From assembly GCF_000306785.1 (NCBI RefSeq), contig NC_017955.1, positions 310,001-374,000 on the forward strand: a DNA stretch of 64,000 nt, in the 5' to 3' direction. The notes beneath the pieces are model-generated. The model made no database searches, was not told the DNA's origin, and worked only from the letters and a program-made list of their open reading frames with translations. This DNA comes from Modestobacter italicus. GTDB taxonomy: Bacteria > Actinomycetota > Actinomycetes > Mycobacteriales > Geodermatophilaceae. The position numbers and the translations under genes are program-made. This document shows, in pieces, positions 30,651 through 49,293 of the stretch. Position 1 is the stretch's first letter, and every line of letters starts with the position of its first letter.

Positions 30651-30737
30651 GGAGGGCTCGCCTAGTGGCCGATGGCGGCGGTCTTGAAAACCGCTATGGG
30701 GTCAAACCCATCGTGGGTTCGAATCCCACGCCCTCCG
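30651..30737 (+). tRNA. serT: tRNA-Ser (anticodon TGA)
   Basis: An 87-nt cloverleaf with acceptor stem GGAGGGC/GCCCTCC and discriminator G. The anticodon loop CTTGAAA reads UCA codons. The long class II variable arm is GGGTCAAACCC and the T arm GTGGGTTCGAATCCCAC. The CCA end is not encoded. A TAGCCT box at 30,634 may be its -10 element. The gene is intact although its 3' half is the attachment site of the downstream elements. Confidence 0.95.
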
Positions 30738-30848
30738 CTCTGATCAGCGGTTTCGTCGTTGTTCGACCGGGCGTCGGGCTCCTGAGGGGGCTCAGCGCCC
30801 TCGTCGTGCCCGCTGCGTGCCCGTACGGTTCGCGCTCGTGCCCGCCGC
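30687..30848. repeat. Attachment repeat copy 1 (left end of element 1)
   Basis: From AAAACCGC in the anticodon stem through the tRNA 3' end and a further 110 bases, this stretch recurs at 46,145-46,306 with only about two mismatches. It contains the tRNA 3' half (the crossover region) and the left arm motif at 30,806-30,828. Confidence 0.9.
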
Positions 30849-30860
30849 CCGGAGGACGCC
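30792..30860 (-). pseudogene. Leftover C-terminal tail of an earlier integrase
   Basis: On the minus strand the frame ending at 30,792 reads AAGTSANRTGTQRARRGR, the same tail as the integrase remnant that ends at 46,250. The intact integrase (31,466) ends differently. It marks an older or recombined integrase next to the tRNA. Confidence 0.6.
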
Positions 30861-30991
30861 CGCGGCGACGACCTGGCGCCGACCAGGGGATCTCGGGCAA
30901 GATCCTCTTCTTCGCCACGCCCCCCATGTGGGAGCTGTGCCGATGCAAATGGCGGCACGAGTGCTCAAGCCGTCGGGACAGGAGGCGCTGG

Positions 30992-31252
30992 ATGAAGAAG
31001 CACGAGCTGGACACAGGTAACACAGCCATGCGCAGGGGCGCATCGCTTCTGATCATCCCCGCCGGCTTGTTCGTTGCTGCTCTCGGCCTCTTCTCCGGCT
31101 CCCTGTCCACGGGACTGAGGATCTTCATCGTCGCCCTTGGCATCTGCTTCGCTGTAGCGGGGTGGTGGATCTTCGTCACGCTGAGCAAGATCCTGGCCCG
31201 GGAGAAGACCAACCAGGGTGGGTTGGTGCAGGAGGGCGATCGCGATGGCTGA
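30992..31252 (+). CDS. Small two-span membrane protein
   Basis: An 86-aa protein starting MKKHELDTGNTAM, with hydrophobic segments at about residues 14-35 and 43-65 and a charged C-terminus. AGGAGG lies before ATG 30992. Its stop overlaps the next small gene by eight bases (ATGGCTGA), so the two are coupled. I recognise no family. Confidence 0.6.
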   Translation: MKKHELDTGNTAMRRGASLLIIPAGLFVAALGLFSGSLSTGLRIFIVALGICFAVAGWWIFVTLSKILAREKTNQGGLVQEGDRDG

Positions 31253-31397
31253 GTGGCTGGCAGCGGCCTTCGGAGTGCTGCTGATCGTGGTCGCAGCCCT
31301 CGCCGGCGTTCAGCCGGGGGTGATCGCAATCGGTGCGGTGGCGGTGGTCATCGCCGTGGCCGCCTTCTTCATCAGGTCCCGCAAGAGCACCCGTTAG
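31245..31397 (+). CDS. Very small two-span membrane protein
   Basis: A 50-aa protein (MAEWLAAAFGV to RSRKSTR) with two hydrophobic stretches and a basic tail, overlapping the preceding small membrane gene. GGAGGGCGATCGCG is upstream of ATG 31245. Unknown function; paired small membrane proteins in islands can be toxins or anchors, but nothing here proves it. Confidence 0.55.
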   Translation: MAEWLAAAFGVLLIVVAALAGVQPGVIAIGAVAVVIAVAAFFIRSRKSTR

Positions 31398-31465
31398 CTG
31401 CGATCGCTGCTCGCCGACATCTGTCGACCCTCGGCCTCCCTCGGGCGTCCTCGGGCTCTTGTGGT

Positions 31466-32611
31466 TCAGCGGGCTCGACGAGGCCGCTGCCTGTCCGGAG
31501 GGTTCGTCCTCGGGCCGGCCGCGAGGCGGCCCAGCCGTGCGGCGACCTCGGCGTCGCGTCGCTCGGCGGCGTGCTGGTAGATCATTGCCGCGCGCGACGA
31601 CGAGTGGCCGGCCCGGCGCATCACCTCGGCGAGCGTGGCGCCGCTCTGTGCTGCCAGCGTGAGGCCGGCATGGCGCAGGTCGTGCAGGTGCGCCTCGGGC
31701 AGGGACGCCCGCTTCCGCGCCGTCTGCCAGGCCGCATGCACGTGATGCGCGCGGAGCAGGCTGCCATCGGGCCTGGCGAACAGCCGGTCGGTCGGGACAG
31801 TCGTCCCCCGCACTCGCAAATGCTCGTCCAATGCGTCGACACCCTGGTCGGGCAGGTGCACGGTCCGCTGGCTTCCCGCCTTCGGCGCGCTTTCCTCCGG
31901 TCCGGTGTCGGTCTCGACGACCTGTCGCCGCACAGACACCTTGCCCGCGTCCAAGTCGACGTCCTCGATGCGCAGAGCGACGAGCTCGCCCAGCCGCAGG
32001 TGCCCCCAAAAGGCGAGCTCGACCAGGCCGCGGAGATGGACGGGCATGTTGGCGGCGAGCTGTTGGACCTGCTCGAGGTCCAGCAGCGGCCGCTCGTCGC
32101 TCCGCGCCTGTCCGGCGCCGGTGATGCGGCACGGGTTGCGGGCCAGGGCGTCGTCCGCGACCGCGGTGGAGAGGATCGCGCGGAGGACGGCGTAGGCCTG
32201 GCGCGCGGCCGTCGGGCCCGTGGCAGCGGTGGTCTGGGCGTGCCACCGTCGTACGACGGCCGGCGTGATGCGGTCGAGGGGTAGATCTCCGAGGCTTGGC
32301 AGTACCCAGCGGTCGAGTGAGTGCTGGTAGGTCTCCCGGGTCCGGGTGGCCAGCGGACGGCCGCGGACGCTGCGCTCGGCGAGCCAGGACTGGCTGTACT
32401 CACGGAGCCGGACGCCGCTGCGGTGTGGATCGAGCCAGGCGCCTCGGGCCATGTCGACTTCGGTCGCGGCCAGGAAGCGGGCGGCGTCCGTCTTGGTCGC
32501 GAAGGTGGTGGGCGCGGACCGGTCCCTGCCGTCGGGTCCGGGGTAGCGGGCCTGCCAGCGACCGGAGGGCAGCTTGCGCACCCGCCCGAACCGCCGTCTG
32601 GCTGGAGGCAC
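31466..32611 (-). CDS. int: Tyrosine recombinase/integrase of element 1
   Basis: A 381-aa site-specific integrase. It has an N-terminal AP2-like arm-binding domain (GRWQARYPGPDGR), a SAM-like core-binding domain and a catalytic domain with Arg in WGHLRLGEL, HxxR in LHDLRHAG, the His/Arg in GHSSSRAA and the nucleophile Tyr in MIYQHAA. The C-terminus points to the tRNA att site, the usual order. GTG 32611 is the start. Everything needed for activity appears intact. Confidence 0.95.
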   Translation of the reverse strand: MPPARRRFGRVRKLPSGRWQARYPGPDGRDRSAPTTFATKTDAARFLAATEVDMARGAWLDPHRSGVRLREYSQSWLAERSVRGRPLATRTRETYQHSLDRWVLPSLGDLPLDRITPAVVRRWHAQTTAATGPTAARQAYAVLRAILSTAVADDALARNPCRITGAGQARSDERPLLDLEQVQQLAANMPVHLRGLVELAFWGHLRLGELVALRIEDVDLDAGKVSVRRQVVETDTGPEESAPKAGSQRTVHLPDQGVDALDEHLRVRGTTVPTDRLFARPDGSLLRAHHVHAAWQTARKRASLPEAHLHDLRHAGLTLAAQSGATLAEVMRRAGHSSSRAAMIYQHAAERRDAEVAARLGRLAAGPRTNPPDRQRPRRAR

Positions 32612-32671: not shown

Positions 32672-32893
32672 TCACCGTCGGCTGGTGGTCGGAGCTGCCG
32701 GCTCGACGACGCGCGCGTCCAGGTAGGCGTCGAGGTCGGACTGCCAGAAGCGCAGCGAGCGGCCGGCGTAGGTGAACCGGACCTTGCGTTCCGCGACCAG
32801 GCGGTAGATCAGTCGTCGGCCGCAGCGGAGGTATTCGGCAGCGCTGTCGACGTCGTGCAGTCGGCCGGTGGAGCGGGTGTTGTGGGTCGCCAC
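32672..32893 (-). CDS. xis: Probable excisionase, MerR-like HTH
   Basis: A 73-aa winged-helix protein with the segment LHDVDSAAEYLRCGRRLIYRLVAERKV followed by AGRSLRFWQSDLDAYL, the pattern of helix_turn_helix_17/excisionase proteins. AGGGGA lies five bases before GTG 32893; the open frame upstream is not family-like. It lies 60 bases upstream of the integrase on the same strand, as expected for a directionality factor. Confidence 0.85.
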   Translation of the reverse strand: MATHNTRSTGRLHDVDSAAEYLRCGRRLIYRLVAERKVRFTYAGRSLRFWQSDLDAYLDARVVEPAAPTTSRR

Positions 32894-33224
32894 GTCTGTC
32901 CCCTCGTACGCCGGTGAACGTTCGTCAAAGCACTCGGCGGCGTAGGTCGTGCATGGGATTCGCCGTCGTTGCCCTGTAGGCGCCGTGCGCCGCTGATCGG
33001 TGACATGGCTGCAGCCGGCCGGGCGAGCGCCAGCCGTGAGTGTCATTGCCCGCGGCCGTCTTGCGCCGGCGGGTTGGGTTCCCCGGATCGGACCTGGAGG
33101 CTGTGTACGGCTGGCCACAGGGGAGAAGGAAGTGGTGTAACGGCCGCCCCGTCAGGGCGGCGATGCGCGGGATGACGCGGTCTGGGATGTGTCACCCCGG
33201 CTGCTGGTCGGCCGGCTCGGAACG
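32894..33224. other. Intergenic gap with one hairpin
   Basis: No gene seen in 331 bases. A hairpin GCCGCCC/GGGCGGC at 33,143-33,161 may terminate the zinc-ribbon gene. Confidence 0.4.
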
Positions 33225-33716
33225 TCACCCCTGTCGGGTTCGGCGCTCGAAGGCGGCCAGGACCTCCCGCAGCGCGCCCGCAACGATGGGCAGGTCCCGG
33301 TCGTAGACGGCGCCACGATCCAGCTGCTGGCAGAGCTCGCGCAGAGTGTCACCCCACTCGCCGTGGCGCGGAACTCGCACCGCAGGGGTCGGGATGGAGA
33401 TGACGACCGGCCGCTCGACGATCTCGACCGCTGCCAAGCCGGAAGCGGCGGCGCGCTTCTGCTCCCAAGCGCGCTTCCTGCATGTGGCCGAGCACCACTT
33501 GGGGACAGGCCCGCGGGTCCGGGGCGTGATCGGGCCCTGGCACCACCCACAGGTGGTCGCAGCAGCCCGACGCGCGCTGTCGGTCGCCCGAGCCGATAAC
33601 GATTCGCGGGCTGGTTCTGGTCCTTGAGCTGTCGCCGCGCGCTCTTGCTCCTGACGTCGACGGCGTTCGCGCTCACGTCGGCGGGCTCTGTAGTCGCTGT
33701 TCCCTTTGTTGCTCAT
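33225..33716 (-). CDS. Unknown basic protein with a four-cysteine zinc motif
   Basis: A 163-aa protein. The N-terminal 25 residues are almost all Arg/Glu/Gln. A likely zinc ribbon follows, CGWC (56-59) and CSATC (75-79), then KRAWEQKRAAASG. The C-terminal part is helical. ATG 33716. I do not recognise the family; similar small Cys-ribbon proteins are frequent in actinobacterial mobile elements. A DNA-binding role is plausible only from charge and zinc motif. Confidence 0.7.
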   Translation of the reverse strand: MSNKGNSDYRARRRERERRRRQEQERAATAQGPEPARESLSARATDSARRAAATTCGWCQGPITPRTRGPVPKWCSATCRKRAWEQKRAAASGLAAVEIVERPVVISIPTPAVRVPRHGEWGDTLRELCQQLDRGAVYDRDLPIVAGALREVLAAFERRTRQG

Positions 33717-35675: not shown

Positions 35676-37070
35676 GTGACCGTGCGCCTGCCGAGCCGCT
35701 ACGAGGACCTCGACCCCGCGTTCCGGGGGCGGCTGCGCCCCAACCGCCCGCTGCTCGAACTGGTCCAGCGGGCCCACCGGGCCATGAGCATCTCGGGGGG
35801 AATCCGGTTCCTGCCGATCTACGGGAGGAGTGGCACTGGGAAGAGCTCCGCCGCCCGGGAGTTGGCGACGCACCTTCCCGAGGCGAAGGTCGTCGAGCTG
35901 TCGCGCGCGGCGATTATCTCCGAGGCGACGCTTCTCCAGGAGATCCGCACGGCCATTGGCCGCCGGAACCAGCCCAGCCTCCTCATCGCGGTCGTCGACC
36001 AGTACGAGGAGCGCGTGGCCGAATCGTCATCGGTGCCGACCCAGTTCGTGGAGCGGCTGAGCCTGCTGGACCGCGGGGAGCTCCGTCAGACCCCGGTCCT
36101 CTTCCTGTGGCTCACCACGAGCCGGGACTTCCAGCAGGATCTCGCGGCAGCAACCAGCCGCAACGAGCGCATTCTGCTGGCCGGCGACTTCGAGCTGATG
36201 GGTCCCGAACAGACCGAGTGGGCCGAAATCGTCGAGGAGACGTTCGCGTTCCACAACCAGGAGCAGCCGCTCGCCGACTTCGAGGTGCTCCGCACCAACA
36301 TCGACGAGGTCGCGGACGTCGCCCCGACCCTGGGCGCGACGATCGAGGCCGTCGGGGAACTGCTCGGCCATCAAGCGTCGTCCCTCCAGGATCTGTCTCA
36401 GTACCAGGTCGTCATGCTGTGGCCGGTCACGGACGGGCACCGCATCACCAGGGTGTCCGCGTTCACCAATGCCCGCGACGGCTACAAGCTGGACTGGAAC
36501 GCCTTCTACCGAGAGCTCAACGAGGAGGACCGGCGGACCCTCCCGCTGTCGGAGCTGAACCGGGCACGGCTGTACTTCGACGTCCGGCTCGTGCCCATCG
36601 CGGCGGCCGACCTGCACCCGCTGTGCCGCAAGCTCGACGACCCCGACTTCGTCCCCAGCCCGTCGTACCTGGACCGATTCGAGAAATCGCACTTTTTCTC
36701 CATCGTGAACGAGACCTGGAACCCGGCGACCTTCGCGCCGATGCGCGAGCGCGACTCCGACCGGGCCACGAAGGCCCGGGAGTGGTACGAGGGCGGCATC
36801 ACCGACCAGCCCACTGCCCTGGGGCGGCGGATCGCCAAGTGCCTCACCGCTCTGGGCCTCAACGCCGACCACGAGCGCACCATCAAGTCACCCCACGCCA
36901 CCGTGCGCGCCGACATCGCGGTCGACCGCAAGGAGAGCCAGCAGACCACGTGCATCGTGGAGCTCAAGGTGTTCTCGACTGAGGGGACCCGGCCGTCCTC
37001 GATCAAGGACGCGATTCGGACCACCCTGAAGCGCCACGCGCAGTTCGCGGGGTTCCTCGGGCGGCAGTGA
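35676..37070 (+). CDS. P-loop ATPase with C-terminal PD-(D/E)XK-like segment
   Basis: A 464-aa protein of no family that I can name. Walker A is GRSGTGKSS (residues 50-58) and a Walker-B-like strand is SLLIAVVDQYEER (101-113), so the N-terminal half is a STAND/AAA-like ATPase. The C-terminal 75 residues hold ADIAV (Asp413), then CIVELKV (Glu429-x-Lys431), the spacing of a PD-(D/E)XK nuclease core, followed by a helix. The middle is unassigned. The start is GTG 35676 without leader. It lies beside a protein kinase and restriction-type nucleases, so defence is a reasonable guess. Confidence 0.75.
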   Translation: MTVRLPSRYEDLDPAFRGRLRPNRPLLELVQRAHRAMSISGGIRFLPIYGRSGTGKSSAARELATHLPEAKVVELSRAAIISEATLLQEIRTAIGRRNQPSLLIAVVDQYEERVAESSSVPTQFVERLSLLDRGELRQTPVLFLWLTTSRDFQQDLAAATSRNERILLAGDFELMGPEQTEWAEIVEETFAFHNQEQPLADFEVLRTNIDEVADVAPTLGATIEAVGELLGHQASSLQDLSQYQVVMLWPVTDGHRITRVSAFTNARDGYKLDWNAFYRELNEEDRRTLPLSELNRARLYFDVRLVPIAAADLHPLCRKLDDPDFVPSPSYLDRFEKSHFFSIVNETWNPATFAPMRERDSDRATKAREWYEGGITDQPTALGRRIAKCLTALGLNADHERTIKSPHATVRADIAVDRKESQQTTCIVELKVFSTEGTRPSSIKDAIRTTLKRHAQFAGFLGRQ

Positions 37071-37481: not shown

Positions 37482-39569
37482 TCAGGCTCGACGCCAGGAG
37501 CCCGCGGGGTCGCTCTCCGGAATGAATGACGGCCGGAACAGCTTGCCCTTCACCGCCGCGCCGAACCAGCCGATCCAGCGGTCCCCGAACTCGTCGGTCT
37601 CTCCGGGGACCAGTTCGGTGAACGGCCACGCCACCTGCGTGGACGCTAGGACGTCGGACAAAGCGCCTTCCGCTTTTTCAGGCCACAGTGCGAACGGCTC
37701 CTGGGGGCCGCCACCGTGCTGAGACATGAAGGCGGTTTCGAACCAGCCGTACTGGCCCTCTCGCTGCGCGTCGCAGTACCACAATGAATGGCTGCGCCCC
37801 TCCCAGTCGGCGTGGGTGGGATGGACAACGACCTTGACCGTCGCGTGCGCGATGACGTCGAACGGCCACCGTGGGGCGAGGTCTGGAACGGGCCACGCCG
37901 TCGACAGCTCCAAAGCCGCGCCGTCGAGGATGACGAGCCAACCCCCGTCATCTAGGTGATAGACGGCGACGCCCGGCGCTGCCTCAAGGACGGTGGACAG
38001 CAGAGTCGTCGACACGCGCGCCCAGGTTCGGCTGGCTGCCGCAGCGAGTCCCGGCCGGCGCTTCTGCTTCGTCATGTTGGTGATGTCCTGCGCCGTCACC
38101 ACCGCCGCGGCTGCCACCTCCCGTTCGCAGTGCTGCCGGTAGGCGTCGACGAGCGCCGAGAACCCCGGTGCCGTCTTCGGTGTGGCTGCATGCTCAAGGC
38201 GCTGGAGCAGGCTCACCGGTGTCGGGCGGGCTTTCGGCTGCTTCGCCAGACAGTCCTGGACGATCGCGTCGAGCTGAGGCGAGACGCCCCCGAGATGCGG
38301 CGGCGCCTGGGTCAGGTGCTGCTCCTGAAAGTCGTGAAGGCCCGGGCCGGGGAATGGCCGGTGCCCGGCCAGCAGCTCGAAGGCCATCACACCGACGGCG
38401 TAGACGTCGGCCGCCGACGTTGCACGGTCCAGCCGCCACTGCTCGGGCGCGGCGTACTCCTTCGACAGGGAGAACATCCGGGTGTGGGTGGCTGTGGATG
38501 CGTCGCTGTAGCGGGAGATGCCGAAGTCGGCTAGGCACCAGGTGCCGTCGAGCAGCATGACATTCTCGGGCTTGATGTCGCGATGCACTACCTGGCCCTC
38601 GAGGTCGGTCAGCGCGGTGACCACGTCAATCAGCACCGCCAGGGCTTCCCCGACGGACAGGCCGCCGCCGGCCGCGAACAGGCGCTCGCGAAGCGTCGCG
38701 TCCGCCATCGGCATGACCAGGACGTAGTCGTCGCCGAGCTCGCCGTCGTCGAGCACTGGGACGACGTTCCGGAAGCCCTCTTGCCGGGCGAACAGCAGTT
38801 CCCGTTCTGCCCCCGGCTCCTTCGGCACGAACTTCACGGCCACGGCAGTCCCGTCGTCGCCCACGGCGACGAACACCTTCCCGAAGCCACCCTCGCCCAG
38901 CTGCTCGCCGAGCCGCCAGCGGCGGTTCAGCTGGATGATGTTCTCTGCTGGCGCTGCCTGGCGGGTGTCTCGGGAGGCAGGGGCCCGCTCCTTGCGTCGC
39001 CCCCAGTACTCCGCCAGGTCATGGACACCCGCGTAAGGCCGCGCCCGGCGGTCCACGCGGAGCTGCCAAGAGTCCTCCGACAGGCTGTTGCTGCCGGTCC
39101 AGGGTTCGCTGACCAGCAGGAGGCCGGACCGCCGGGCGACGTCCCGTGCTCGGGACGGGTCGATGCCCAGTTCCCTGGCCACGTCGGCGAAGGTGAGCAA
39201 CGGGTCGGCCTCGGCCGGGTCCAGGTCCCGTTCGGCGGCCGCTGCGAGCCGAGCTGCCGCCACGACGACGTCGATCGCCGGACCACTTCCAGAGCAGGAC
39301 GCGGCTCCGGCGAGGGTTAGCGTCAACTCCCCGTCATCCCGGGGCGGCGCCCCACCCTCGGGCCGCCCGCCGCGCAGCAGCTCCGTCGACGTGCGACTCA
39401 TGACGGTGGCGATGTCCAGGTGGTGCTGGTGGAACAGAACCCGGTCCACGCGCTCGTAGGTGGGCCAGTGGCCGCCCATGGCGAGCATGTCCCACACCGT
39501 CTGGAGCAGAAGCGCGACCTCTAGGTCCGGCGGCACGAGCAGCCCAGGCACTTCCTCGGCCGTGCTCAT
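37482..39569 (-). CDS. Ser/Thr protein kinase with unknown N- and C-terminal domains
   Basis: A 695-aa soluble kinase. Residues 1-about 210 are an unassigned helical region. The kinase domain spans about 216-465, with GEGGFG (225-230), Lys246 in AVKF, HRDIKPEN (329-336), DFG (348-350) and APEQW (374-378), all active-site residues present. Residues about 475-695 are an unassigned domain rich in Trp and His. No membrane span and no PASTA repeat are present, unlike housekeeping PknB. Three-part cytosolic kinases in islands are often anti-phage sensors. ATG 39569. The HTH remnant overlaps its 3' end. Confidence 0.88.
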   Translation of the reverse strand: MSTAEEVPGLLVPPDLEVALLLQTVWDMLAMGGHWPTYERVDRVLFHQHHLDIATVMSRTSTELLRGGRPEGGAPPRDDGELTLTLAGAASCSGSGPAIDVVVAAARLAAAAERDLDPAEADPLLTFADVARELGIDPSRARDVARRSGLLLVSEPWTGSNSLSEDSWQLRVDRRARPYAGVHDLAEYWGRRKERAPASRDTRQAAPAENIIQLNRRWRLGEQLGEGGFGKVFVAVGDDGTAVAVKFVPKEPGAERELLFARQEGFRNVVPVLDDGELGDDYVLVMPMADATLRERLFAAGGGLSVGEALAVLIDVVTALTDLEGQVVHRDIKPENVMLLDGTWCLADFGISRYSDASTATHTRMFSLSKEYAAPEQWRLDRATSAADVYAVGVMAFELLAGHRPFPGPGLHDFQEQHLTQAPPHLGGVSPQLDAIVQDCLAKQPKARPTPVSLLQRLEHAATPKTAPGFSALVDAYRQHCEREVAAAAVVTAQDITNMTKQKRRPGLAAAASRTWARVSTTLLSTVLEAAPGVAVYHLDDGGWLVILDGAALELSTAWPVPDLAPRWPFDVIAHATVKVVVHPTHADWEGRSHSLWYCDAQREGQYGWFETAFMSQHGGGPQEPFALWPEKAEGALSDVLASTQVAWPFTELVPGETDEFGDRWIGWFGAAVKGKLFRPSFIPESDPAGSWRRA

Positions 39570-39711: not shown

Positions 39712-40611
39712 TTACGCGGAGAGCCGAGCCGGCTCGCGGAAGACCTGTTCGGTGTGCCAGCCCCGGTGGGTGTCGGCCACCGTGGGGTGCCCGGCCTGCG
39801 GCGACAGCAGGGGCGCCCCGGCCAGGGACAGCACCTGCGCCTGGGCGGCCCGCGCCCGGCCGACGAACAACTGGGACACCATGACGGTGCCATCGTCGGC
39901 CAGCCCGACTACGCCGCGGTCGAACAGCCGGTGGTGCAGCGTGCACAGCCCGAGCGCGTTGTCGATGGAGTCGGGTCCGCCGATGGCCCGCCAGTGCACG
40001 TGGGCGGCATCCAGCCCGATGACCTCCCCGCCGAGCCAGTCGTCGAAGCCGCACGTGGCGCAGCGGCCCTCGTACGCGACGAGAACGGCGGCACAGAACG
40101 CGGTGTCACGGCGGCGGCCGGCCTCGGCGACCGCGGCCTCGACGGGTTCGAGGGCGAGTCCGCACCGGGCCAGCAGGTCCTCGTGGAGGGACGCCGGGAA
40201 GTTTGCATCGAGTAGGGCGCGGACGGCGGCCGCGAGCAGGGTGGGGTCGGCGGGCAGCGCCGCCTCGAACGCGGGTTCTAGCTGGCCGACCGCACCGGCG
40301 GATCGGAGGCGGCCGACAGCGGTGCCCAGCGGGCGTGCGTCCGCGCCGGTGGCGTCCGTCATGGCCCACAGCCCGTCGTTGGTCAGGTGGGGGAACGGGA
40401 ACTCGGGGTGGTGACTTGCCACGGCTCGGGCCGAAGTCGCGGAGCAGCTGGCGGACGGGCTCCTCCAGCTCGGTGAATGCGACCGGCCCGGGGCGACCGG
40501 CCTGAAGCCGGCGAGCATCCACAGCAGCAGAAGGGGCTTGTGCGGGGCGCGCTGCCCGTCCCTGCTCCAGCGACGCAGCTTCTGCACGCGGGCCAGCCAC
40601 TGTTCCTGCAC
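39712..40611 (-). CDS. HNH endonuclease of the phosphorothioate-sensing (SBD-HNH, ScoMcrA-like) type, internally frameshifted
   Basis: A 299-aa modification-dependent restriction enzyme. The N-terminus RAPHKPLLLLWML and HHPEFPFPHLTNDGLW are hallmarks of the sulfur-binding domain. The HNH part has CATC (184-187), AAHVHW (His204) and DNALGLCTLHHRLFDRG. Residues 34-66 are out of the ancestral frame: the expected VAFTELEEPVRQLLRDFG is readable in another frame of the same DNA. Two compensating indels (about -1 then -2) restore the frame. The reading frame is intact but sulfur binding may be damaged. GTG 40611 is chosen; the frame is open to 40692. Confidence 0.82.
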   Translation of the reverse strand: MQEQWLARVQKLRRWSRDGQRAPHKPLLLLWMLAGFRPVAPGRSHSPSWRSPSASCSATSARAVASHHPEFPFPHLTNDGLWAMTDATGADARPLGTAVGRLRSAGAVGQLEPAFEAALPADPTLLAAAVRALLDANFPASLHEDLLARCGLALEPVEAAVAEAGRRRDTAFCAAVLVAYEGRCATCGFDDWLGGEVIGLDAAHVHWRAIGGPDSIDNALGLCTLHHRLFDRGVVGLADDGTVMVSQLFVGRARAAQAQVLSLAGAPLLSPQAGHPTVADTHRGWHTEQVFREPARLSA

Positions 40612-40799
40612 GCCCCCATCCTGACCTCCCCGACGTCCCAAGCTGCTGTGCAGATCCGCGTCGCCACGGGGCGTGTCCCCAACCCGGGGCATGGCGGGAG
40701 GTCCGGCGCGCTAGCGTGCCAGGAGGATGGGATCAAGAAGGCGACCCTCGTGGTGGGCGCGACCACGGGGCACCCATGAGGCTGAGGTAGGAACAGGCC

Positions 40800-41411
40800 G
40801 TGAGCGCAGCGGAGGCGACCGCGCAGTCCCTCATCGACGTCTGGGCTGGTGAGGTCCGGCGCCTCGTGCCCGAGGTTCGGGCCCTACATCAGCAGTACGA
40901 CCTGGACCTCCAGAGGGTGAAGGACGACGTCCGAAGGCTGAACGAGGGGCAGGGCGGGGACTGGAGTCTCGGCGAGCACTACACCTACGCCACTTGGCGG
41001 CGGTTCTGGGCTGCACAGCATCACCTCGTGTGGGCCGCGCACCAACTGGAGCGCTGGGTGCGGCGTCTGGCTCGCGAGCGGGGCACCCTCGAACCTGAGC
41101 CCGACCCCCTGCTCGCTGCCCTGCGCAACGCTCTCGAACATCTCGACGAGGCGGAGCTCGATGGGTACCTCCTCGCCTCAGCCGGGAACGACCCGCGACG
41201 CAACCGGTCGCTGCGGAGCCTGCCCGATGCACGGCTGCCCATCGGGATGACGACGGACCCCCGCCAGCTGTTCGACCTTCTCGACACCGACGAGGTCGAG
41301 CGTCGGGCCCTTGGCGTTGTGACCACCGCGGACCGGTTGGCGGCGGAAGTGCAGGCGTGGGCGCAGGAACGGAGGTCCCGCGGTGAGATGTCACCGGTCG
41401 CGGACGACTAA
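40800..41411 (+). CDS. Unknown helical protein
   Basis: A 203-aa protein starting at GTG 40800. It is rich in Leu, Arg, Glu and Trp with heptad-like helices (for example HHLVWAAHQLERWVRRLARERG) and no membrane span or known motif. Neighbours are the HNH nuclease upstream (divergent) and a second unknown gene. I do not recognise it; coding is supported by third-position GC bias and length. Confidence 0.65.
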   Translation: MSAAEATAQSLIDVWAGEVRRLVPEVRALHQQYDLDLQRVKDDVRRLNEGQGGDWSLGEHYTYATWRRFWAAQHHLVWAAHQLERWVRRLARERGTLEPEPDPLLAALRNALEHLDEAELDGYLLASAGNDPRRNRSLRSLPDARLPIGMTTDPRQLFDLLDTDEVERRALGVVTTADRLAAEVQAWAQERRSRGEMSPVADD

Positions 41412-41487
41412 CGGTGAGCGGTTTCGCTCTGCGCCCGAGCAGTCCAACTCGGCGGAGGCGCGCCGAGAACTGAGCTCGCCAGCGCAC

Positions 41488-41517
41488 AGCCCCGACGTCC
41501 GCGCGGACGTCGGGGCT
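41488..41517. terminator. Perfect palindrome terminator
   Basis: Arms AGCCCCGACGTCCGC and GCGGACGTCGGGGCT with no unpaired loop base beyond the turn, between two convergent genes. Confidence 0.88.
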
Positions 41518-41536
41518 GCCGTGCTGACCAGCTAAT

Positions 41537-42490
41537 TCAGGCGGCGCAACACCGCCGCGGGCACGGGTAGGTCTCGGGCAGCAGCGCCGGCACGAGCTCC
41601 AGGCTGGTCTGAGGCCAACGGTGCGTCGCCGTGTACGAGCTCACCATCCAGGTTCTTGCGGCGAACTCCCGCAGCTTCTCGGAGGACGCCTCTGGGAGCT
41701 GCAAGCGGGCGGCTCGCGTCGCCCAGGAGTGCAGCAGACGGGGGTGCTCCGCCGTGGCCCAGCGCCATGGCCAAACCAAGTCCGCGGTCGCGTGGTACTT
41801 GCCGAGGAGGCCGCCGCGGGGCGCGTGAACCGGGACGAAGAGTCCACGCACATGGGGGTGGATGCGCCGGACCCGGGCGTCGGTGCCGCAGCTGTTCCAT
41901 GGCGCCGGCACCGGCACAGCTGAGGCCGCCGCGGAGCCGTATCCGATCTGCACCAGCTGCGGAACCACGTGCGAGATGGCGTCCGGGCAGTCCCGGGTAG
42001 GGGTCTCCTTGAACCTCAGTCGGCCGCCGTCCGCGGTGCGGAAGGAGCAGGTGCAGCGGGACCCGCTATGGGCGCCGATGACCAGCTCGCCGGCGGCCTC
42101 GGCGGCGACGAAGGCGTTCGCCTGACGTTGAGCCTCGCCCAGCTGCGGGTCGGTGAGGGCGCTGAGGCGGCCCGACTGACCAGGGGAGCCCGGGCCCTTG
42201 AGCTCACCCGCACTCAGGTCGAGCAGCCCGTCGGGTGTTTCCTCGGCGAGGTGGACGTCGAGCCCCGTGGTCAGCGACGGAGTTTGAAGGACCACGAGCG
42301 GCCGGGTGAGCACCCGCGTGGCGTAGTGGTGGGCGATCCATCCGCCGGCCAGTTCCAGCCAGGCGCTTTGGGCGACGGGCCCGAAGTCGGGATCGGTGAG
42401 GATGGCGACGATCGAGTCGGCGAGGTCGGCTTCCGCCGGCCTGCGCAGCAGGTCATCGTCGGCCGGGCGGATGTACGGAGTGGCGTGCAC
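41537..42490 (-). CDS. Unknown protein of the island
   Basis: A 317-aa protein from GTG 42490 with no family that I recognise. The middle has FVAAEAAGELVIGAHSGSRC and the C-terminal part is rich in His, Trp and Arg, ending in CPRRCCAA, an unusual Cys cluster. It is compositionally similar to the rest of the island. No signal peptide or membrane segment. Confidence 0.6.
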   Translation of the reverse strand: MHATPYIRPADDDLLRRPAEADLADSIVAILTDPDFGPVAQSAWLELAGGWIAHHYATRVLTRPLVVLQTPSLTTGLDVHLAEETPDGLLDLSAGELKGPGSPGQSGRLSALTDPQLGEAQRQANAFVAAEAAGELVIGAHSGSRCTCSFRTADGGRLRFKETPTRDCPDAISHVVPQLVQIGYGSAAASAVPVPAPWNSCGTDARVRRIHPHVRGLFVPVHAPRGGLLGKYHATADLVWPWRWATAEHPRLLHSWATRAARLQLPEASSEKLREFAARTWMVSSYTATHRWPQTSLELVPALLPETYPCPRRCCAA

Positions 42491-43845: not shown

Positions 43846-45597
43846 TCACTGCTTTGTGGCGATGAATGCCACTACGTCAGACAGGAGTTGCTCTGCCTCT
43901 GGACTAGAGGTGTAGAGACTTTCCTCGAAGACCTGACGCAGCCACGTCTGCTTATTTCCTCCCACCTCAGGGTGGAAGCGCTCCAGCTCCCCGATGGGAA
44001 GGATGAAGAGACCCACAGACTTAGCAGCGGCAAGTATGGCGTTGAAGGCATCGACTGGATTGCCGCTTGGAAGCGCGCCTACTCCGTTTTTCTTAGCGAG
44101 TTCCCATCCGCTGCGACTCCTCAGCAGGTCTCGAACTTCTCGAACCTCCGACGGGGACATTGAGGGTTCGGTGCTGGCGTCGATGCGTTCGATGATGCGG
44201 TAACGAGTGAAGGCGCGATCCGGTTTCGTCGCTTGGGCGCTGAGCGCACTCTCGACAGTGTTCAGAGCCGCCGACAAAGAGGTCGGATCGCCCCCTAGCA
44301 CAGTGAGCAACTCTACAAACTTTGACCTATCCGCCAAAAGGTCGATATCCGCGATGATCGCCGTCGGGACCTGCGTCGACAGGAGCGCCCTCGCTGCTTT
44401 GGCGAACCGATCCTTGCCGCCGCACTGAGTGAATAGCAGATCGGGCCGCGGTACGGCTGCTTCCGCCCTCGTAAATTTGTTATCGAGGACTGCGGCGTAG
44501 TATTGACAATCACCTTCCGCTTCACACAGCACCACGCCCTTGTAGAAAATCCCGCTTAGGATGTTCGAATACCTGAGTAGCGGGTCTTCGAAGAGCCCGC
44601 GTACGGCTGCTGGTGGCAGCTGCGCTACGGCATTAACGGCCGGCTCAGGGCGTGTGAGCCGAGCGATGGTGACGTCTGTGGCAGACGCCGAGGCTTGAAG
44701 AACTCCTCGCAGAAAGTCGTCACTGTGGGTCGACACCAAGAGCTGCGTTCTCTGCTTGGCCAGGTCCACGAATACCTCGCCGAGGAGCCTAGCTTGGGGA
44801 GGGTGGAGGAAGGCTTCGGGTTCGTCGATCAGCACAATGTCGTACTGGCCTGCCATCAACGTTAGAACCATGCCCAGGAACGCCTGGACCCCGTGCCCCT
44901 GCTGCGCCACAAGCGGCAGGGAAGCCACCTCCGCGATGTATGGCGACGGCTGTCCGACCGCAGGTTCCGGCGTTGTTGGCCTCCCAACGTGCAGGCCGAT
45001 CTGAGCTCCTCCGTGGCGATTGAGTGTCAAGTCTATGCCAAAGGCGCGCATCGCCAAGACTTGGACCCGCTCCTCGAGCGCCCGATCAGCCCACGTCTTT
45101 TGCAACGGCCCTGTCGGGACCTCTTGGTAGAGATTCGGCACCTGCGCGTGACCTAGGTGTCCCAGTCGACTCTCCGGCTGGAGCAGCATGGCTAGGTGCT
45201 GCGCCAGAAATCCCAGGTGTTGCGCCTCTGGACCGCTGGACAGGACGGCATCAATCTGAGAAAGGGGAGTTGCTCCGACTCCGCGCCCGAAAAAGTGGTC
45301 CTCGTAATATAGTCCGTCCTCATACTGACCTGCGGACCTCAATTCAGCGCTCAGGGCCAGTCTGCTATGGACCTCTTCTCGACTCGGTAGGGCAAGGTCG
45401 AGATGGTCCACAACAGGGAGGGGGCTATATTGCTGTCCCCCGGTGTGCTGAATTAGTTGCCAGGCCGATCCGAGAAGAGCCGACTTGCCAACATTGTTCG
45501 GTCCAACGATGACTGTCAGGTGGTCGCTGACATCGATATGGTCCCCGCTTCGCAGTTGTATGCACTTGATGCGAGCGGGCACATCTCCTCCAGACAT
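43846..45597 (-). CDS. OLD-family ATP-dependent nuclease (ABC ATPase plus TOPRIM)
   Basis: A 583-aa overcoming-lysogenization-defect family protein. Walker A is GPNNVGKSA (32-40), the signature region VAQQGHGVQAFLGM, Walker B IVLIDEPEAFLHP (254-266) and the switch STHSDDF. The TOPRIM domain has Glu359 in VLCEAEGD, TQCGGKDR and Asp417/419 in IADIDLL. It would cleave or nick DNA under nucleotide control, typical of anti-phage systems. No UvrD-like partner follows, so it is a stand-alone class 1 OLD and not a Gabija pair. The DNA is visibly richer in A/T than its neighbours. Confidence 0.9.
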   Translation of the reverse strand: MSGGDVPARIKCIQLRSGDHIDVSDHLTVIVGPNNVGKSALLGSAWQLIQHTGGQQYSPLPVVDHLDLALPSREEVHSRLALSAELRSAGQYEDGLYYEDHFFGRGVGATPLSQIDAVLSSGPEAQHLGFLAQHLAMLLQPESRLGHLGHAQVPNLYQEVPTGPLQKTWADRALEERVQVLAMRAFGIDLTLNRHGGAQIGLHVGRPTTPEPAVGQPSPYIAEVASLPLVAQQGHGVQAFLGMVLTLMAGQYDIVLIDEPEAFLHPPQARLLGEVFVDLAKQRTQLLVSTHSDDFLRGVLQASASATDVTIARLTRPEPAVNAVAQLPPAAVRGLFEDPLLRYSNILSGIFYKGVVLCEAEGDCQYYAAVLDNKFTRAEAAVPRPDLLFTQCGGKDRFAKAARALLSTQVPTAIIADIDLLADRSKFVELLTVLGGDPTSLSAALNTVESALSAQATKPDRAFTRYRIIERIDASTEPSMSPSEVREVRDLLRSRSGWELAKKNGVGALPSGNPVDAFNAILAAAKSVGLFILPIGELERFHPEVGGNKQTWLRQVFEESLYTSSPEAEQLLSDVVAFIATKQ

Positions 45598-46144
45598 ATA
45601 AACATGGCGACTCGTCCACTATCGCAGGCGGCAGGGCGGCCCGCACCTGTACGTACGTTCCGGCCGCCTCTCGTCGCTCCGCGCGGTTCACTCGGGTGAT
45701 CCTGCAGCCCCACACTCTGGTCACGGTGGAGCCTGTGTTGGCGGTCGACCGTGAAATTAGAGCCAGCGGCGGCAGGTCGCACCACGAGGCAGCGATCCGG
45801 CCGAACTGTATTCCCGGTTTCAACTTCCCGCGTCGTTCGTCGTTCGTCGGTCGGGTGTAAGGGCCACATGCTCGGGGCCGTAGACGTCGACTTCAGCTCG
45901 CGACTTGGCACGTCGGGTCGACGTGTCCCATAGGCCGCCTTCAGGAACAAACCGGCCTCGTCGCCAGGCCAACGCCAGATCGCCTCGCAGGCTGTCGACT
46001 CCCGGCTGCTTGACCGTGCCCGCTACGTGCCCGTACGGCGGGCACGAAACGGCCAATCGGAGTCACCAGCGGTGAACCGACCAGGCAGCTGACCAGCGGA
46101 TATGCGGAAAGGGACTGCTCAGCGAGCACGGCAGAGAGAACTTA
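45598..46144. other. Right end of element 1 without genes
   Basis: A 547-base stretch. It contains the right arm motif (46,016-46,038) 129 bases before the second att copy. No convincing gene; short frames here are poor in coding signal. Confidence 0.6.
46016..46038. promoter_or_regulatory. Putative integrase arm site, right end of element 1
   Basis: GTGCCCG followed after four bases by GTGCCCGTACGG, the same motif as at 30,806, 46,264, 49,111 and 49,363. It lies 129 bases before the att repeat. Confidence 0.65.
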
Positions 46145-46306
46145 AAAACCGCTATGGGGTCAAACCCATCGTGGGTTCGAATCCCACGCCCTCCGCTCTG
46201 AGCAGCGGTTTCGTCGTTGTTCGACCGGGCGTCGGGCTCCTGAGGGGGCTCAGCGCCCTCGTCGTGCCCGCTGCGTGCCCGTACGGTTCGCGTTCGTGCC
46301 CGCCGC
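46145..46306. repeat. Attachment repeat copy 2 (junction of elements 1 and 2)
   Basis: Near-identical to 30,687-30,848, including the tRNA-Ser 3' half, which here lacks its 5' half. It forms the right end of element 1 and the left end of element 2. Confidence 0.9.
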
Positions 46307-46411
46307 GAGGCGGCCCAGCCGGGCGGCGACCTCGGCGTCGCGTCGCTCGGCGGCGTGCTGATAGATCATTGCCGCCCGCGACGACGAATGGCCGGCCCGG
46401 CGCATCACCTC
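46250..46411 (-). pseudogene. Integrase C-terminal remnant
   Basis: The minus-strand frame reads EVMRRAGHSSSRAAMIYQHA and then AERRDAEVAARLGRLAAG, matching the catalytic end of the intact integrase including the Tyr, with a different tail (TNANRTGTQRARRGR). The match stops abruptly at about 46,411. Confidence 0.9.
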
Positions 46412-46426
46412 GACGTCCTTGTCGCA

Positions 46427-46768
46427 ATGGAACCGAGCAGGACGGCGGAGGTCATCACCCAGCTGGAGCGCCTGCAGGCAGACCTGAAGGCGGACCTCTT
46501 GGCGGTACAGCCCGACGACCTCGGTGCGCGGCGGGCGAGGGTCGCGCTGAGCGTGCTTCGCGGCGTGAGTCAGCCCACTCAAATCCGGGGAGTTGTCCGG
46601 GAAGTGCAGACGGAGGTGTCCGCCGAAGAGCGCCGCCTGGTGCGCGCCTTGCGGGCCGTCGACTTCGAGCTGCGTCACCTCCGTTCGCCTGAGTGGAAAC
46701 GAGCGGTGTCCCGCCTGCCGCGGGTGGTGGGTCTGCCGAGAGCGTCGAAGTTGCTGGACCCGTACTGA
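46427..46768 (+). CDS. Small helical protein of unknown function
   Basis: A 113-aa frame from ATG 46427 (MEPSRTAEVITQLERL), amphipathic helices with many Arg and Glu, ending RASKLLDPY. It begins just beyond the integrase breakpoint and could be a real cargo gene or a fusion product. I do not recognise it. Confidence 0.45.
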   Translation: MEPSRTAEVITQLERLQADLKADLLAVQPDDLGARRARVALSVLRGVSQPTQIRGVVREVQTEVSAEERRLVRALRAVDFELRHLRSPEWKRAVSRLPRVVGLPRASKLLDPY

Positions 46769-47196
46769 GCGGCTCCGCAGCCGGCCTCCACCCGTGATCG
46801 CAGAGCGCGCCCTGACACTGCAGCGCGTCCTGGTCGTCGGGGTCGTCCCGATTGACGAGCCGGGCGCTGCGTCCGGCAAACCGCTATGTCCTCGCCCGAG
46901 GAGGGCAGAATCGACGGACGGCCTACTGCCCGGACGGGTCGACTCCGAACTGGGCGTACGAGCTCTGCTGGTCAGGCATCGTTCACTCATCGAAAACGTA
47001 CTGAGACGGGCCCATCCACTCAACGTTGACCAACATGATCTGTCCTGGTCAACGGGCCTTTCCGCAAACTGTCGACGTTGATCAATCAGGTCAAGATCAA
47101 ATCGCGGGTTGTGGGTTCGATCCCCACGGGGCGCACGCCGGCTCCGGGCGGCCGGACCGGGGCCCCTCCCTCCGGCCGCCCGACTGCTGCGCCGGG
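46769..47196. other. Gap containing a fragment of another tRNA gene
   Basis: No gene. At 47,106-47,142 a T arm GTGGGTTCGATCCCCAC is followed by GGGGCGCA, the 3' end of a tRNA other than tRNA-Ser. The 5' part is absent. It suggests an older insertion or a chimeric piece. Confidence 0.6.
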
Positions 47197-47922
47197 TCAG
47201 GCGACGAAGCCGGCCAGCACCTCGTCGAACCAGGGGTAGAGCTCCTCGGCGGGTGTGCTCAGCCGGGACTTGAGGTTGCGGGTCGGCTCGTCGGCCAGCA
47301 CCTCGAGCGCACCGGCGAGCATCCCGTCGTAGGCCTGGGTGACGACGCTGACGGCGCTCACCTTCGGCACGTTCCACTTCTGCGACATCGGGGTGTCGAC
47401 CATCCCGACCAGCAGGCCGGTGACCTGGGTGCCCTGCCCGCGCAGCTGGACTCGCAGCGCGTTGGTCGCCGACCACATCGCCGCCTTGGACGCGGCGTAG
47501 CCGGTCGGCACGCTCAGCCAGCTCGCTGCCGACAGGACGTTGAGCAGGTTGCCACCGCCGTTGGCCGCCAGCGCCGGGGCGAAGGCGTTCGCGACCCGGA
47601 TCGCACCGAAGAAGTTGGTCTCGAAGACGCGGCGCAGCTCGTCCTCCGGCCCGGCGATGGAGTCGCCCTCGGGGGCGATGCCGGCGTTGTTGACCACCAG
47701 GTCGACGTCGGACGCAGCGGTGACGGCCCGGACGACGGCGTCGGGGTCGGTGACGTCCAGGGCGAGGGGGCTGACCCGGCTGTCGGTCCAGGTCCGCGGC
47801 GTACGGGCGGCGGCGTGGACGCGACGGGCGCCGCGGTCGAGCGCCTGCTGCACGAACTCCTCGCCGAGTCCGCCGTTCGCGCCGGTCACGAGCACGGTGC
47901 GGCCATCGAGTGACGCATTCAT
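47197..47922 (-). CDS. Short-chain dehydrogenase/reductase
   Basis: A 241-aa classical SDR. The Rossmann motif is VLVTGANGGLGEE, NNAGIA follows, and the active site is Ser in NVLSAASWL and YAASK. GAGGAG lies five bases before ATG 47922. It is divergent from a TetR gene with a double operator between them, so the regulator almost surely controls it. Substrate unknown. Confidence 0.92.
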   Translation of the reverse strand: MNASLDGRTVLVTGANGGLGEEFVQQALDRGARRVHAAARTPRTWTDSRVSPLALDVTDPDAVVRAVTAASDVDLVVNNAGIAPEGDSIAGPEDELRRVFETNFFGAIRVANAFAPALAANGGGNLLNVLSAASWLSVPTGYAASKAAMWSATNALRVQLRGQGTQVTGLLVGMVDTPMSQKWNVPKVSAVSVVTQAYDGMLAGALEVLADEPTRNLKSRLSTPAEELYPWFDEVLAGFVA

Positions 47923-47940
47923 CTAGACTCCTCGCTCAAG

Positions 47941-47981
47941 TGGGGACTGTCCCCAGCTAGAGCATGTGGGGACTGTCCCCA
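47941..47981. promoter_or_regulatory. Tandem TetR operator, TGGGGACTGTCCCCA twice
   Basis: Two identical 15-bp perfect palindromes at 47,941-47,955 and 47,967-47,981, centres 26 bases apart, lie between the divergent SDR and TetR genes. Confidence 0.88.
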
Positions 47982-47999
47982 GTTCGTCAAGGAGGCGAC

Positions 48000-48650
48000 G
48001 TGACCACTGTTGGGGGCGTCGCGGCCAAGCGCCCGCTGCGCGCCGACGCGCAGCGCAACCGGGACGCCGTCCTCCGGGCCGCGCGGGAGACGTTCGAGAC
48101 CGAGGGCGTGCTCGCCTCGCTCGACGGCATTGCGCTGAAGGCCGGCGTCGGCAACGCGACGCTGTACCGGAACTTCCCTACCCGCGACGACCTGCTCGCC
48201 GCCGTTCTGGAGTCCAACGTGGTCGACGCGCTGGCCGCCGCCGACGAGCTGTCCCGCTCCCTGTCGCCGCGGGACGCCCTCGCCGAGTGGCTGGTGCACC
48301 TGACCTGGCAGCTGCGCATCTGGCACGACCTGCCCTACTGCATCTCCGTCGTCACCACCGACCCCGACTCACCCCTGAGCTCGGCGCGGAACCCGCTGCT
48401 CGTCCGCACCGAGGTGCTCCTGGAGGCCGCCCGGTCCGCGGGCGATGTGCGGGACGACGTCACCGCCGACGAGCTGCTCGAGCTGGCCACCGCGCTGTCC
48501 TGGGGCGTCGACCGCTACCGCGACGACGAGCCCACCGCGCGCCGCCGGGTGGCCATCGCGACCGCCGGCGTCTTCACCTGGCCACCCGGCAGGCGGTTCC
48601 GCGGAACCGCCTGCCGGGTGTCTCAGAGGCCGGCCTGGTCCACTCCGTAG
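48000..48650 (+). CDS. TetR family regulator of the adjacent SDR gene
   Basis: A 216-aa regulator starting at GTG 48000 after GGAGG. The HTH is SLDGIALKAGVGNATLYRNFPTRDDL. The last about 22 residues are encoded by an 18-bp-arm terminator hairpin and what follows, so the natural stop was probably near 48,580 and has been lost. The ligand is unknown. Confidence 0.88.
   Translation: MTTVGGVAAKRPLRADAQRNRDAVLRAARETFETEGVLASLDGIALKAGVGNATLYRNFPTRDDLLAAVLESNVVDALAAADELSRSLSPRDALAEWLVHLTWQLRIWHDLPYCISVVTTDPDSPLSSARNPLLVRTEVLLEAARSAGDVRDDVTADELLELATALSWGVDRYRDDEPTARRRVAIATAGVFTWPPGRRFRGTACRVSQRPAWSTP
48583..48620. terminator. Perfect hairpin overlapping the TetR 3' end
   Basis: Arms CACCCGGCAGGCGGTTCC and GGAACCGCCTGCCGGGTG with loop GC. 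It lies just after the stop of the lipoprotein fragment on the minus strand. Confidence 0.88.
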
Positions 48651-48711
48651 TCGGCCTGGGCCTGGGTGAACTGGTCGCCGTACTCACTGGAGAGCTGGTC
48701 GATCAACCCCG
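48623..48711 (-). pseudogene. C-terminal fragment of an Ltp-type lipoprotein
   Basis: The minus strand reads GLIDQLSSEYGDQF followed by TQAQADYGVDQAGL and a stop. This is the repeat of the host-cell-surface-exposed lipoprotein (Ltp) family. Only about 28 residues remain; the 5' part is deleted at about 48,705. Confidence 0.7.
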
Positions 48712-48775
48712 CGCACCGACAAGGGCAAGCCTGTCTGCGCGGGCGCTGCCCGGCCCGGCGTTGTGGACGACGAAC

Positions 48776-48991
48776 TCACCCGCTGAGCGGTGTTCCTGCG
48801 GCTGTGGGCCCGAGGCTGCGGTAGCCCGATCTGGCCCGGACTCGTAGGCGCATCCGCTCGCCCTGCGTGCCCAACGGTGCCAGGACCTCGGCTGGCCGGG
48901 GCCCGAGGGACGTGAACCAGTGCGGCGTGCTGGTGTCGATCTCAGCGACCTCGCCGGCCGGGATCGAGTCGGGTGCGCAGTCGACGTCCAT
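48776..48991 (-). pseudogene. Fragment resembling the cupin end of an XRE-cupin regulator
   Basis: A short frame with AGEVAEIDTSTPHWFTSLGP and LGTQGERMRLRVR, resembling the C-terminal cupin of XRE-type regulators. No HTH precedes it in frame. Assignment is tentative; it is part of the debris before the third att copy. Confidence 0.45.
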
Positions 48992-49110
48992 GACGCTGCG
49001 GTCAGGACGTCGGCGACCCTGCTCGTTCGGTGGGCGGGTCCCGGTCGGCGCGAAGCGTCGGCCGCCGGCTTCGAGTACAGGAACAGCACGGGCCGATCAA
49101 CTTCCGGACC

Positions 49111-49132
49111 GTGCCCGATACGTGCCCGTAGG
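49111..49132. promoter_or_regulatory. Putative integrase arm site, right end of element 2
   Basis: Same motif (GTGCCCG, then CGTGCCCGTA) 131 bases before the third att copy. Confidence 0.6.
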
Positions 49133-49241
49133 ACGTCCACGAGAGGGTCGACAGGGGTGATCAACGGCGAGTCCCAGAAGCGTCCTGACCTGCGGACGCG
49201 ACGACAAGAGCACGTGAGAAAGGCGCGTCGGAGCGATCATG

Positions 49242-49293
49242 AAAACCGCTATGGGGCAAGCCCATCGTGGGTTCGAATCCCACGCCCTCCGCT
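49242..49293. repeat. Attachment repeat copy 3 (right end of element 2)
   Basis: tRNA-Ser 3' half again, but with the variable arm GGGGCAAGCCC in place of GGGGTCAAACCC. Flanking sequence still resembles the other copies, with more mismatches. Confidence 0.88.

What the first reader, a model, noticed from the sequence alone, without database searches (positions are those of the whole stretch)
30651..49293. Two elements integrated in tandem in one tRNA-Ser(UGA) gene
The 3' half of an intact tRNA-Ser recurs at 46,145 and 49,242. The intervals are 15.5 and 3.1 kb. Each interval starts with integrase sequence pointing at the tRNA. The arrangement reads as a stack: a newer, complete element next to the tRNA and an older, decayed one pushed outward.
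Basis: seen in the sequence. Interest (0 to 1): 0.75.

Follow-up and report, generated by a model that had tools for sequence, protein, structure and literature searches.

The report
Stacked mobile elements in one tRNA gene
At one serine tRNA gene of a soil actinobacterium, related mobile elements have inserted one after another, each leaving behind a piece of the tRNA gene, which is a known kind of insertion hotspot with an unusually legible history.

Summary
The 3' part of tRNA-Ser(UGA) (30651-30738) recurs at 46145-46198 and 49240-49294, each time followed by the left end of an integrase element, with arm-like sites at near-constant spacing. The genus is Modestobacter (Geodermatophilaceae). 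The stack is larger than claimed. The third copy also opens an element, so three left ends are visible. A congener with an empty site (G014) shows that the chromosome resumes near 56,500, not at 49,293, so about 25.8 kb is inserted. The inner element is not simply 'new and complete'. Its left end is composite (an arm 98% like element 2's, a 617-bp insert, then the integrase), and the window holds no TrwC-type relaxase, which several relatives carry. In 16 measurable congeners the site ranges from empty to about 50 kb filled. Displaced copies sometimes carry a different tRNA variable arm from the present tRNA. In two species the displaced copy equals a relative's current tRNA 3' half, so insertion replaces half of this tRNA gene. 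Tandem islands at tRNA genes are well known. This is a new member of a known kind, with a tidy fossil record.

The parts
30651..30738 (+). tRNA-Ser(UGA), the integration target; identity between the copies begins within the anticodon (30685-30687)
   Evidence: ARAGORN; BLAST of the 3' part; aligned ends
30792..30848 (-). remnant of an integrase 3' end holding the left arm-like site (30806-30825); 30739-30848 is 98% identical to element 2's left end
30849..31465 (.). 617-bp insert between left arm and integrase; outside G000 only short matches (up to about 70 bp) listed in 112 family genomes
31466..32611 (-). element 1 tyrosine integrase, 381 aa, open frame with RLGEL, HDLRH, GH and IYQH motifs
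   Evidence: Pfam PF00589 8.7e-22; PHROG integrase; motifs located, their catalytic role is recalled
32672..33118 (-). HTH_17 protein, likely excisionase
   Evidence: PF12728; phrog_66 excisionase 1.2e-05
33225..33716 (-). small protein of the integration module, with a relative in a Klenkia locus
   Evidence: no Pfam match; 58% to L069
33931..35046 (-). IS110-family transposase inside element 1
   Evidence: PF01548, PF02371
35676..37070 (+). AAA ATPase cargo
   Evidence: PF00004 above its cut-off
37482..39569 (-). Ser/Thr protein kinase cargo
   Evidence: PF00069; PADLOC mad6 4.5e-48 and PD-T4-6 models
39712..40692 (-). HNH endonuclease cargo
   Evidence: PF13391; PADLOC HNH 5.3e-10
40800..42490 (.). 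two unknown cargo ORFs (40800-41411 +, 41537-42490 -)
   Evidence: no Pfam, PADLOC or PHROG match at the limits used
43846..45597 (-). AAA ATPase with weak OLD-like TOPRIM match, possible defence nuclease
   Evidence: PF13304; PF20469 below its cut-off; PADLOC Old 1.4e-19
46016..46035 (+). element 1 right arm-like site, 127 bp before the position aligned with 30685
46145..46198 (+). second copy of the tRNA 3' part: attR of element 1 and left core of element 2
46253..46411 (-). element 2 integrase remnant (aa 329-381, 83%) with left arm-like site 46264-46283
47197..47922 (-). element 2 cargo: short-chain dehydrogenase
   Evidence: PF00106
47964..48650 (+). element 2 cargo: TetR regulator
   Evidence: PF00440, PF21597
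49111..49130 (+). element 2 right arm-like site, 129 bp before the core
49240..49294 (+). third copy of the tRNA 3' part, 96%: right core of element 2 and left core of element 3
49295..49438 (-). element 3 left end: arm-like site 49363-49382 (1 mismatch) and integrase-like DNA; its right end was not found
49439..56495 (.). rest of the inserted block; pieces of 52192-56490 are shared at the outermost place with G006, G007 and G010
   Evidence: not present between tRNA and right flank in G014 and G016
56496..56520 (+). point where the chromosome resumes, 8 bp from the tRNA in empty-site genome G014

Best explanation
The region is a stack of at least three insertions of elements using one tyrosine-integrase subfamily that targets the anticodon-loop part of tRNA-Ser(UGA). 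An element recombines with the tRNA gene and supplies a new tRNA 3' half plus its left arm and integrase end. The former 3' half is pushed outward with the element's right arm beside it. A later element uses the restored tRNA again, so older ones move outward and decay. Shown: the copies, the paired arm-like sites, integrases beside this tRNA in relatives, the empty site, and displaced tRNA halves equal to relatives' current halves. Inferred: the reaction, the arm-binding role, and the order in this window. The left end of element 1 is composite, which suggests a further insertion or a recombination event there.
For: Copies and arms. Of 11 outer copies in the loci analysed, 8 have the arm 127-129 bp before the core; the other 3 (G002, G011, G012) have none. 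Integrase specificity, in the 30 loci that one search returned (it listed many more, weaker matches): 15 of 15 at 72% best-segment identity or more (own genome included) lie beside tRNA-Ser(tga), 14 of them with the arm; 0 of 14 at 41-45% have it in their 1.5-kb flanks; the one at 61% (L094) lies about 0.7 kb from a broken 5' half of it. Empty site: G014 has the full tRNA, 8 bp, then the homolog of 56496. Displaced half equals a relative's current half in G006 (as in G000 and G007) and in G012 (as in G020). Outward decay: copy 2 54/54, copy 3 96%; element 2 integrase is a remnant; no right end of element 3 was found.
Against: Element 1's left arm is 98% identical to element 2's but only about 63% to the arm region beside its own integrase, so the innermost boundary is not a plain single insertion. 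No right core or arm for element 3 was found. In G001 the displaced half is type C while its nearest relatives G005 and G013 carry type D, which the simplest replacement order does not give. No excision or read data.
Confidence: 0.9

Rival explanations
1. One element plus later duplications: the second and third tRNA pieces arose by copying or conversion of the left end, not by separate insertions.
For: The left ends at 30739-30848 and 46195-46306 are 98% identical, as a recent copy or conversion would be.
Against: The second and third copies each have a right arm before the core as well as a left arm after it, and the third left end is only 78-79% like the other two. Congeners hold insertions with the same ends.
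Confidence: 0.06
2. New elements entered at the outermost copy, so the outer ones are younger.
For: Displaced copies hold core sequence and could serve as target sites (inference).
Against: The outer copies and integrase remnants are more decayed. In G006 and G012 the displaced half equals relatives' current tRNA half, so the tRNA-proximal insertion is the newer one there.
Confidence: 0.04
3. The repeats are chance or a tRNA pseudogene cluster without mobile DNA.
For: None found.
Against: Integrase, excisionase-like gene, arms at near-constant spacing, empty site.
Confidence: 0.005

Closest known systems
Tandem tRNA/tmRNA genomic islands as catalogued in Islander (PMC4383910, abstract start and passages seen)
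   Same: Tyrosine integrase, restored tRNA, displaced tRNA fragment, several islands in a row. Its Table 1 lists 3919 islands, tandems of two or more 125, of three or more 4.
   Different: Only the inner integrase is intact here, so two of the three elements would fail Islander's rule that each member has its own integrase and fragment.
Tandem actinomycete ICEs in Frankia and Streptomyces avermitilis (PMC3218068, passages seen)
   Same: Two elements in tandem in one tRNA gene of an actinobacterium.
   Different: No actinomycete-ICE transfer or replication genes were found among the element 1 ORFs scanned.
Dehalococcoides ssrA islands (PMC3146451, passages seen)
   Same: Multiple tandem islands with direct repeats, an integration module at the left edge and old syntenic material beyond the furthest repeats.
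   Different: tmRNA target and a serine recombinase.
Geodermatophilus and Blastococcus elements with a TrwC-type relaxase at the same tRNA (L066, L067, L071, L073, L074)
   Same: 80-83% identical integrase, same tRNA, same arm motif.
   Different: They carry a TrwC-type relaxase-helicase near the integrase; the window has no TrwC match.

Membership tests
Site-specific genomic island at a tRNA gene | Restored tRNA and displaced tRNA fragment flanking integrase DNA | tested here: met
Site-specific genomic island at a tRNA gene | Empty site in a relative | tested here: met
   G014, 8 bp from full tRNA to the homolog of 56496; G016 nearly so, 137 bp to the homolog of 56558
Islander tandem array | Each island has its own tRNA fragment and integrase gene | tested here: not met
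   Element 1 meets it; element 2 has only 53 integrase codons and element 3 a remnant with no right fragment found
Actinomycete ICE (AICE) | FtsK-type transfer and replication genes (recalled) | tested here: not met
   No such Pfam match in the 11 element 1 ORFs scanned, of 12 picked; 37067-37525 was not scanned
Integrative mobilizable element with MobF relaxase | TrwC-type relaxase | tested here: not met
   Six-frame search of the whole genome with PF08751 finds five, none inside the window; tblastn with the L066 relaxase finds nothing in the window
Prophage or phage satellite | Phage structural or packaging genes | tested here: not met
   10 element 1 proteins (of 12 picked) against PHROGs: integrase, excisionase, kinase and unknowns only
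Mobile element | Excision as a circle | not testable with these tools
   no reads or cultures

The most novel reading that the evidence does not exclude
Integrase elements are the main cause of variable-arm turnover in tRNA-Ser(UGA), usually found once per genome, across Geodermatophilaceae. Each insertion swaps the 3' half, including the class II arm that seryl-tRNA synthetase reads (recalled). Displaced halves in these stacks are a readable fossil record of the gene's past sequences.
Probability: 0.35. Interest if true: 0.6.

Novelty: new member of a known kind. Interest (0 to 1): 0.36.

Why it matters
The site gives a record, ordered by position, of repeated insertions at one tRNA gene across a genus, with the empty site and fillings up to about 50 kb available for comparison. 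If displaced halves do record earlier tRNA versions, mobile elements are shown to rewrite part of a tRNA gene, and the effect of different variable arms on charging becomes testable.

Tried and rejected
Looked for a tRNA core at the outer boundary. In the matching gaps of G007, G006 and G010 the local scores are 14, 18 and 19, against shuffle means of about 17 and maxima of 24-26; in window 56380-56560 the best score is 15, against 94-108 for the real copies. At first I took G002 as a second empty site; it lacks the tRNA 5' half and is an outer copy beside the flank. Looked for a source of the 617-bp insert in 112 family genomes: outside G000 only short matches are listed. Looked for a tie between variable-arm type A and the left arm: A in 11 of 14 genomes with the exact left-arm pattern and in 42 of 85 others with an intact-tRNA pattern match; 53 A-type tRNAs in all after leaving out G012, whose A match is its displaced copy. 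This is not a clear association, and the exact pattern misses G010 and G015, whose arms have one mismatch. Relatives of the integrase on phages or plasmids: all best places in 1109 phage and 102 plasmid records are under 60% identity. A relaxase homology search with one relative's protein proved too narrow, since it missed the Pfam TrwC match in G006; a second query and a whole-genome PF08751 search were added and also put no relaxase in the window; the G006 query matches the window only through its HTH part.

Papers: (Modestobacter, tRNA, genomic island) listed 2 papers, not opened. (variable arm or variable loop with integration terms) listed 1 and 0; in the one (PMC11195616) the single 'variable arm' passage is about chromosome arms. 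I found no account of arm swapping in these searches, which cover open-licence papers only.

Considered and rejected: chance repeats, a tRNA pseudogene cluster, a prophage, an actinomycete ICE. Dropped before a count: G017 from the tree (weak 70% flank match, long branch) and G002 from its count of arm changes (no tRNA seen).
Full report
Where it is. The window is positions 310001-374000 of a single-contig genome of 5,575,517 bases. The integrase search names close matches in Modestobacter, Geodermatophilus, Blastococcus and Klenkia. From recall, not from a call, the genome size suggests M. marinus/italicus BC501.

The observation. There is one tRNA in the window, tRNA-Ser(tga) at 30651-30738. 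Its 3' part recurs at 46145-46198 (54/54) and 49240-49294 (96%). Identity begins within the anticodon (30685-30687). The similarity runs on past the tRNA end into an integrase 3' end at all three places. A 20-base motif occurs at 30806, 46016, 46264, 49111 and 49363; 0.20 matches are expected and 0 of 100 shuffles reach five. It lies 121-123 bp after each of the three core starts, and 127 and 129 bp before the two outer core starts, as arm-type integrase sites would.

Relatives share these ends. In the loci analysed there are 11 outer copies of the tRNA 3' part: two in the window, and one each in G001, G002, G006, G007, G010, G011, G012, L077 and L079. Eight of the 11 have the motif 127-129 bp before the core; those of G002, G011 and G012 do not. 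One search covered 112 family genomes for the integrase and returned 30 loci out of a longer list of matches. In these, the 15 with best-segment identity of 72% or more (one is the window's own) all lie beside tRNA-Ser(tga), 14 with the motif; the 14 at 41-45% have no tRNA-Ser(tga) within their 1.5-kb flanks. The remaining one (L094, 61%) lies about 0.7 kb from a broken 5' half of this tRNA.

How much is inserted. In G014 the full tRNA is followed after 8 bp by the homolog of window 56496; in G016 the homolog of 56558 begins 137 bp after the full tRNA. In G011 an outer copy lies 3 bp from the homolog of 56504. So the chromosome resumes near 56,500, and 30739 to about 56,495 (25.8 kb) is inserted. 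Of 22 congeners, tRNA and right flank can be placed on one contig in 16. Approximate distances from the tRNA to the first right-flank match (which begins between window 56496 and 56843) are G014 0, G016 0.1, G003 1.2, G009 2.4, G011 3.1, G020 5.0, G017 5.2, G010 8.8, G007 9.6, G013 12.0, G008 15.9, G006 17.9, G001 23.1, G018 30.9, G012 49.8 and G005 49.8 kb. G017 rests on a 70% match. G002, G004, G015, G019, G021 and G022 could not be measured.

The three left ends. Element 1 runs from the tRNA to 46144. Its left end is composite. Bases 30739-30848 match element 2's left end at 98% (108 of 110 columns). Then come 617 bp with only short matches listed in 112 family genomes outside G000, then an intact integrase whose own arm region matches the inner one at only about 63%. 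The integrase (381 aa) has the Pfam domain and an open frame; an HTH_17 protein follows with a PHROG excisionase match. Cargo is an IS110 transposase, an AAA ATPase, a protein kinase, an HNH endonuclease, an OLD-like ATPase and unknowns. PADLOC gives kinase, HNH and Old matches, which suggests but does not establish defence. Element 2 (46145-49239) keeps 53 integrase codons and carries a dehydrogenase and a TetR gene. Element 3 begins at 49240 with an arm and integrase-like DNA to about 49438; no right end was found.

The outer block. Pieces of 52192-56490 occur at the outermost place in G006, G007 and G010 too, and the right-flank tree groups these with the window's genome (ultrafast bootstrap 99, SH-aLRT 100). 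Most simply the block predates their split. About 1.58 kb of it (near 53266-54851) is absent at that place from those three but has homologs elsewhere in G009, G012 and G020.

Element type. Five relatives (L066, L067, L071, L073, L074) have a near-full-length match to the L066 TrwC-type relaxase near the integrase, L070 only a fragment, among 15 relative loci searched; Pfam TrwC was confirmed in L066, L073 and L074, the three of the five that were run. G006 has a shorter TrwC match that this query missed. The window has none: a six-frame search of the whole genome with the TrwC family finds five relaxases, all outside the window. Element 1 is thus an integrase-excisionase island without its own recognisable transfer genes. 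It is not shown to be mobile. Mobilisation in trans by one of the genome's relaxase elements is possible but untested.

The tRNA halves. The variable arm at this tRNA takes several distinct forms in the family. The intact-tRNA pattern matches in 99 of 112 genomes, 97 of them with one match and two (G012, G124) with two. The displaced copy differs in arm type from the present tRNA in G001 (C against B), G007 (C against A) and G012 (A against D), and in minor form in G006, G010, G011, L079 and the window's third copy; in L077 and the window's second copy the arm is the same. In G006 the displaced half equals the current half of G000 and G007. In G012 it equals that of G020, with which G012 and G009 form a well-supported group whose inner order is not resolved (0.892 for G012 with G009). 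That is good evidence that insertion replaced the half. Against a simple account: G001's displaced half is type C while its nearest relatives are type D, and type A shows no clear tie to the left arm (11 of 14 with the exact arm pattern, 42 of 85 without). On the right-flank tree at least 6 changes of type are needed among 16 genomes, with G017 dropped and G002 not counted, so homologous recombination of the locus may also act.

Comparison with print. Islander (PMC4383910, passages) lists in Table 1 3919 islands, tandems of two or more 125 and of three or more 4, 2083 islands with anticodon-centred sites and 159 with a 5' tRNA fragment. Tandem actinomycete ICEs are described in Frankia and S. 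avermitilis (PMC3218068, passages), and ssrA stacks in Dehalococcoides (PMC3146451, passages). The finding is therefore a new member of a known kind. I found no account of variable-arm replacement, which is weak evidence of absence.

Verdict. Its count, its outer limit and the word 'complete' need correction.

Noticed in passing
L121 (G023:C45 near 175941-176008) and L120 (G023:C45:151461-151549): In another genus the native tRNA-Ser 5' half is broken about 0.7 kb from a 61% identical integrase, and a full tRNA-Ser with a different 5' half lies about 24.4 kb away, as if an element replaced the 5' half. G011 (L051) also has the different 5' half.
   Followed up: partly
left arms in L066-L075 against the window and L055: In Geodermatophilus and Blastococcus the arm GCTACG appears to hold the integrase TAG stop; with GCTGCG in Modestobacter the frame reads about 11 codons further into the arm.
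   Followed up: partly
window 53266-54851: A block of about 1.58 kb (TetR-like ORF, NAD-binding protein) sits here but is absent at this place in G006, G007 and G010; homologs lie elsewhere in G009, G012 and G020 (the NAD-binding match is, the TetR name is by eye).
   Followed up: no
window 49475-52086 and L049 3781-13136: GAF-ANTAR genes: two in the window's outer block, four in the element of G006.
   Followed up: no
L055 3506-8975: The element at this tRNA in VKM Ac-2985 carries an AAA ATPase, a subtilase and a SIR2-like protein in a row, which looks like a defence cassette.
   Followed up: no
L066 318-1148 and 3840-4973: TIR-domain proteins (one CAP12/Pycsar-like) near the relaxase-bearing Blastococcus element; whether both lie inside it was not settled.
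   Followed up: no
outside the window: G000:C1:792148-793014, 1672299-1673513, 3092519-3093727, 3715028-3716236, 5182051-5182920: The genome holds five TrwC relaxase matches elsewhere; the one at 5182051 lies about 4 kb from an integrase 41% identical to element 1's.
   Followed up: no
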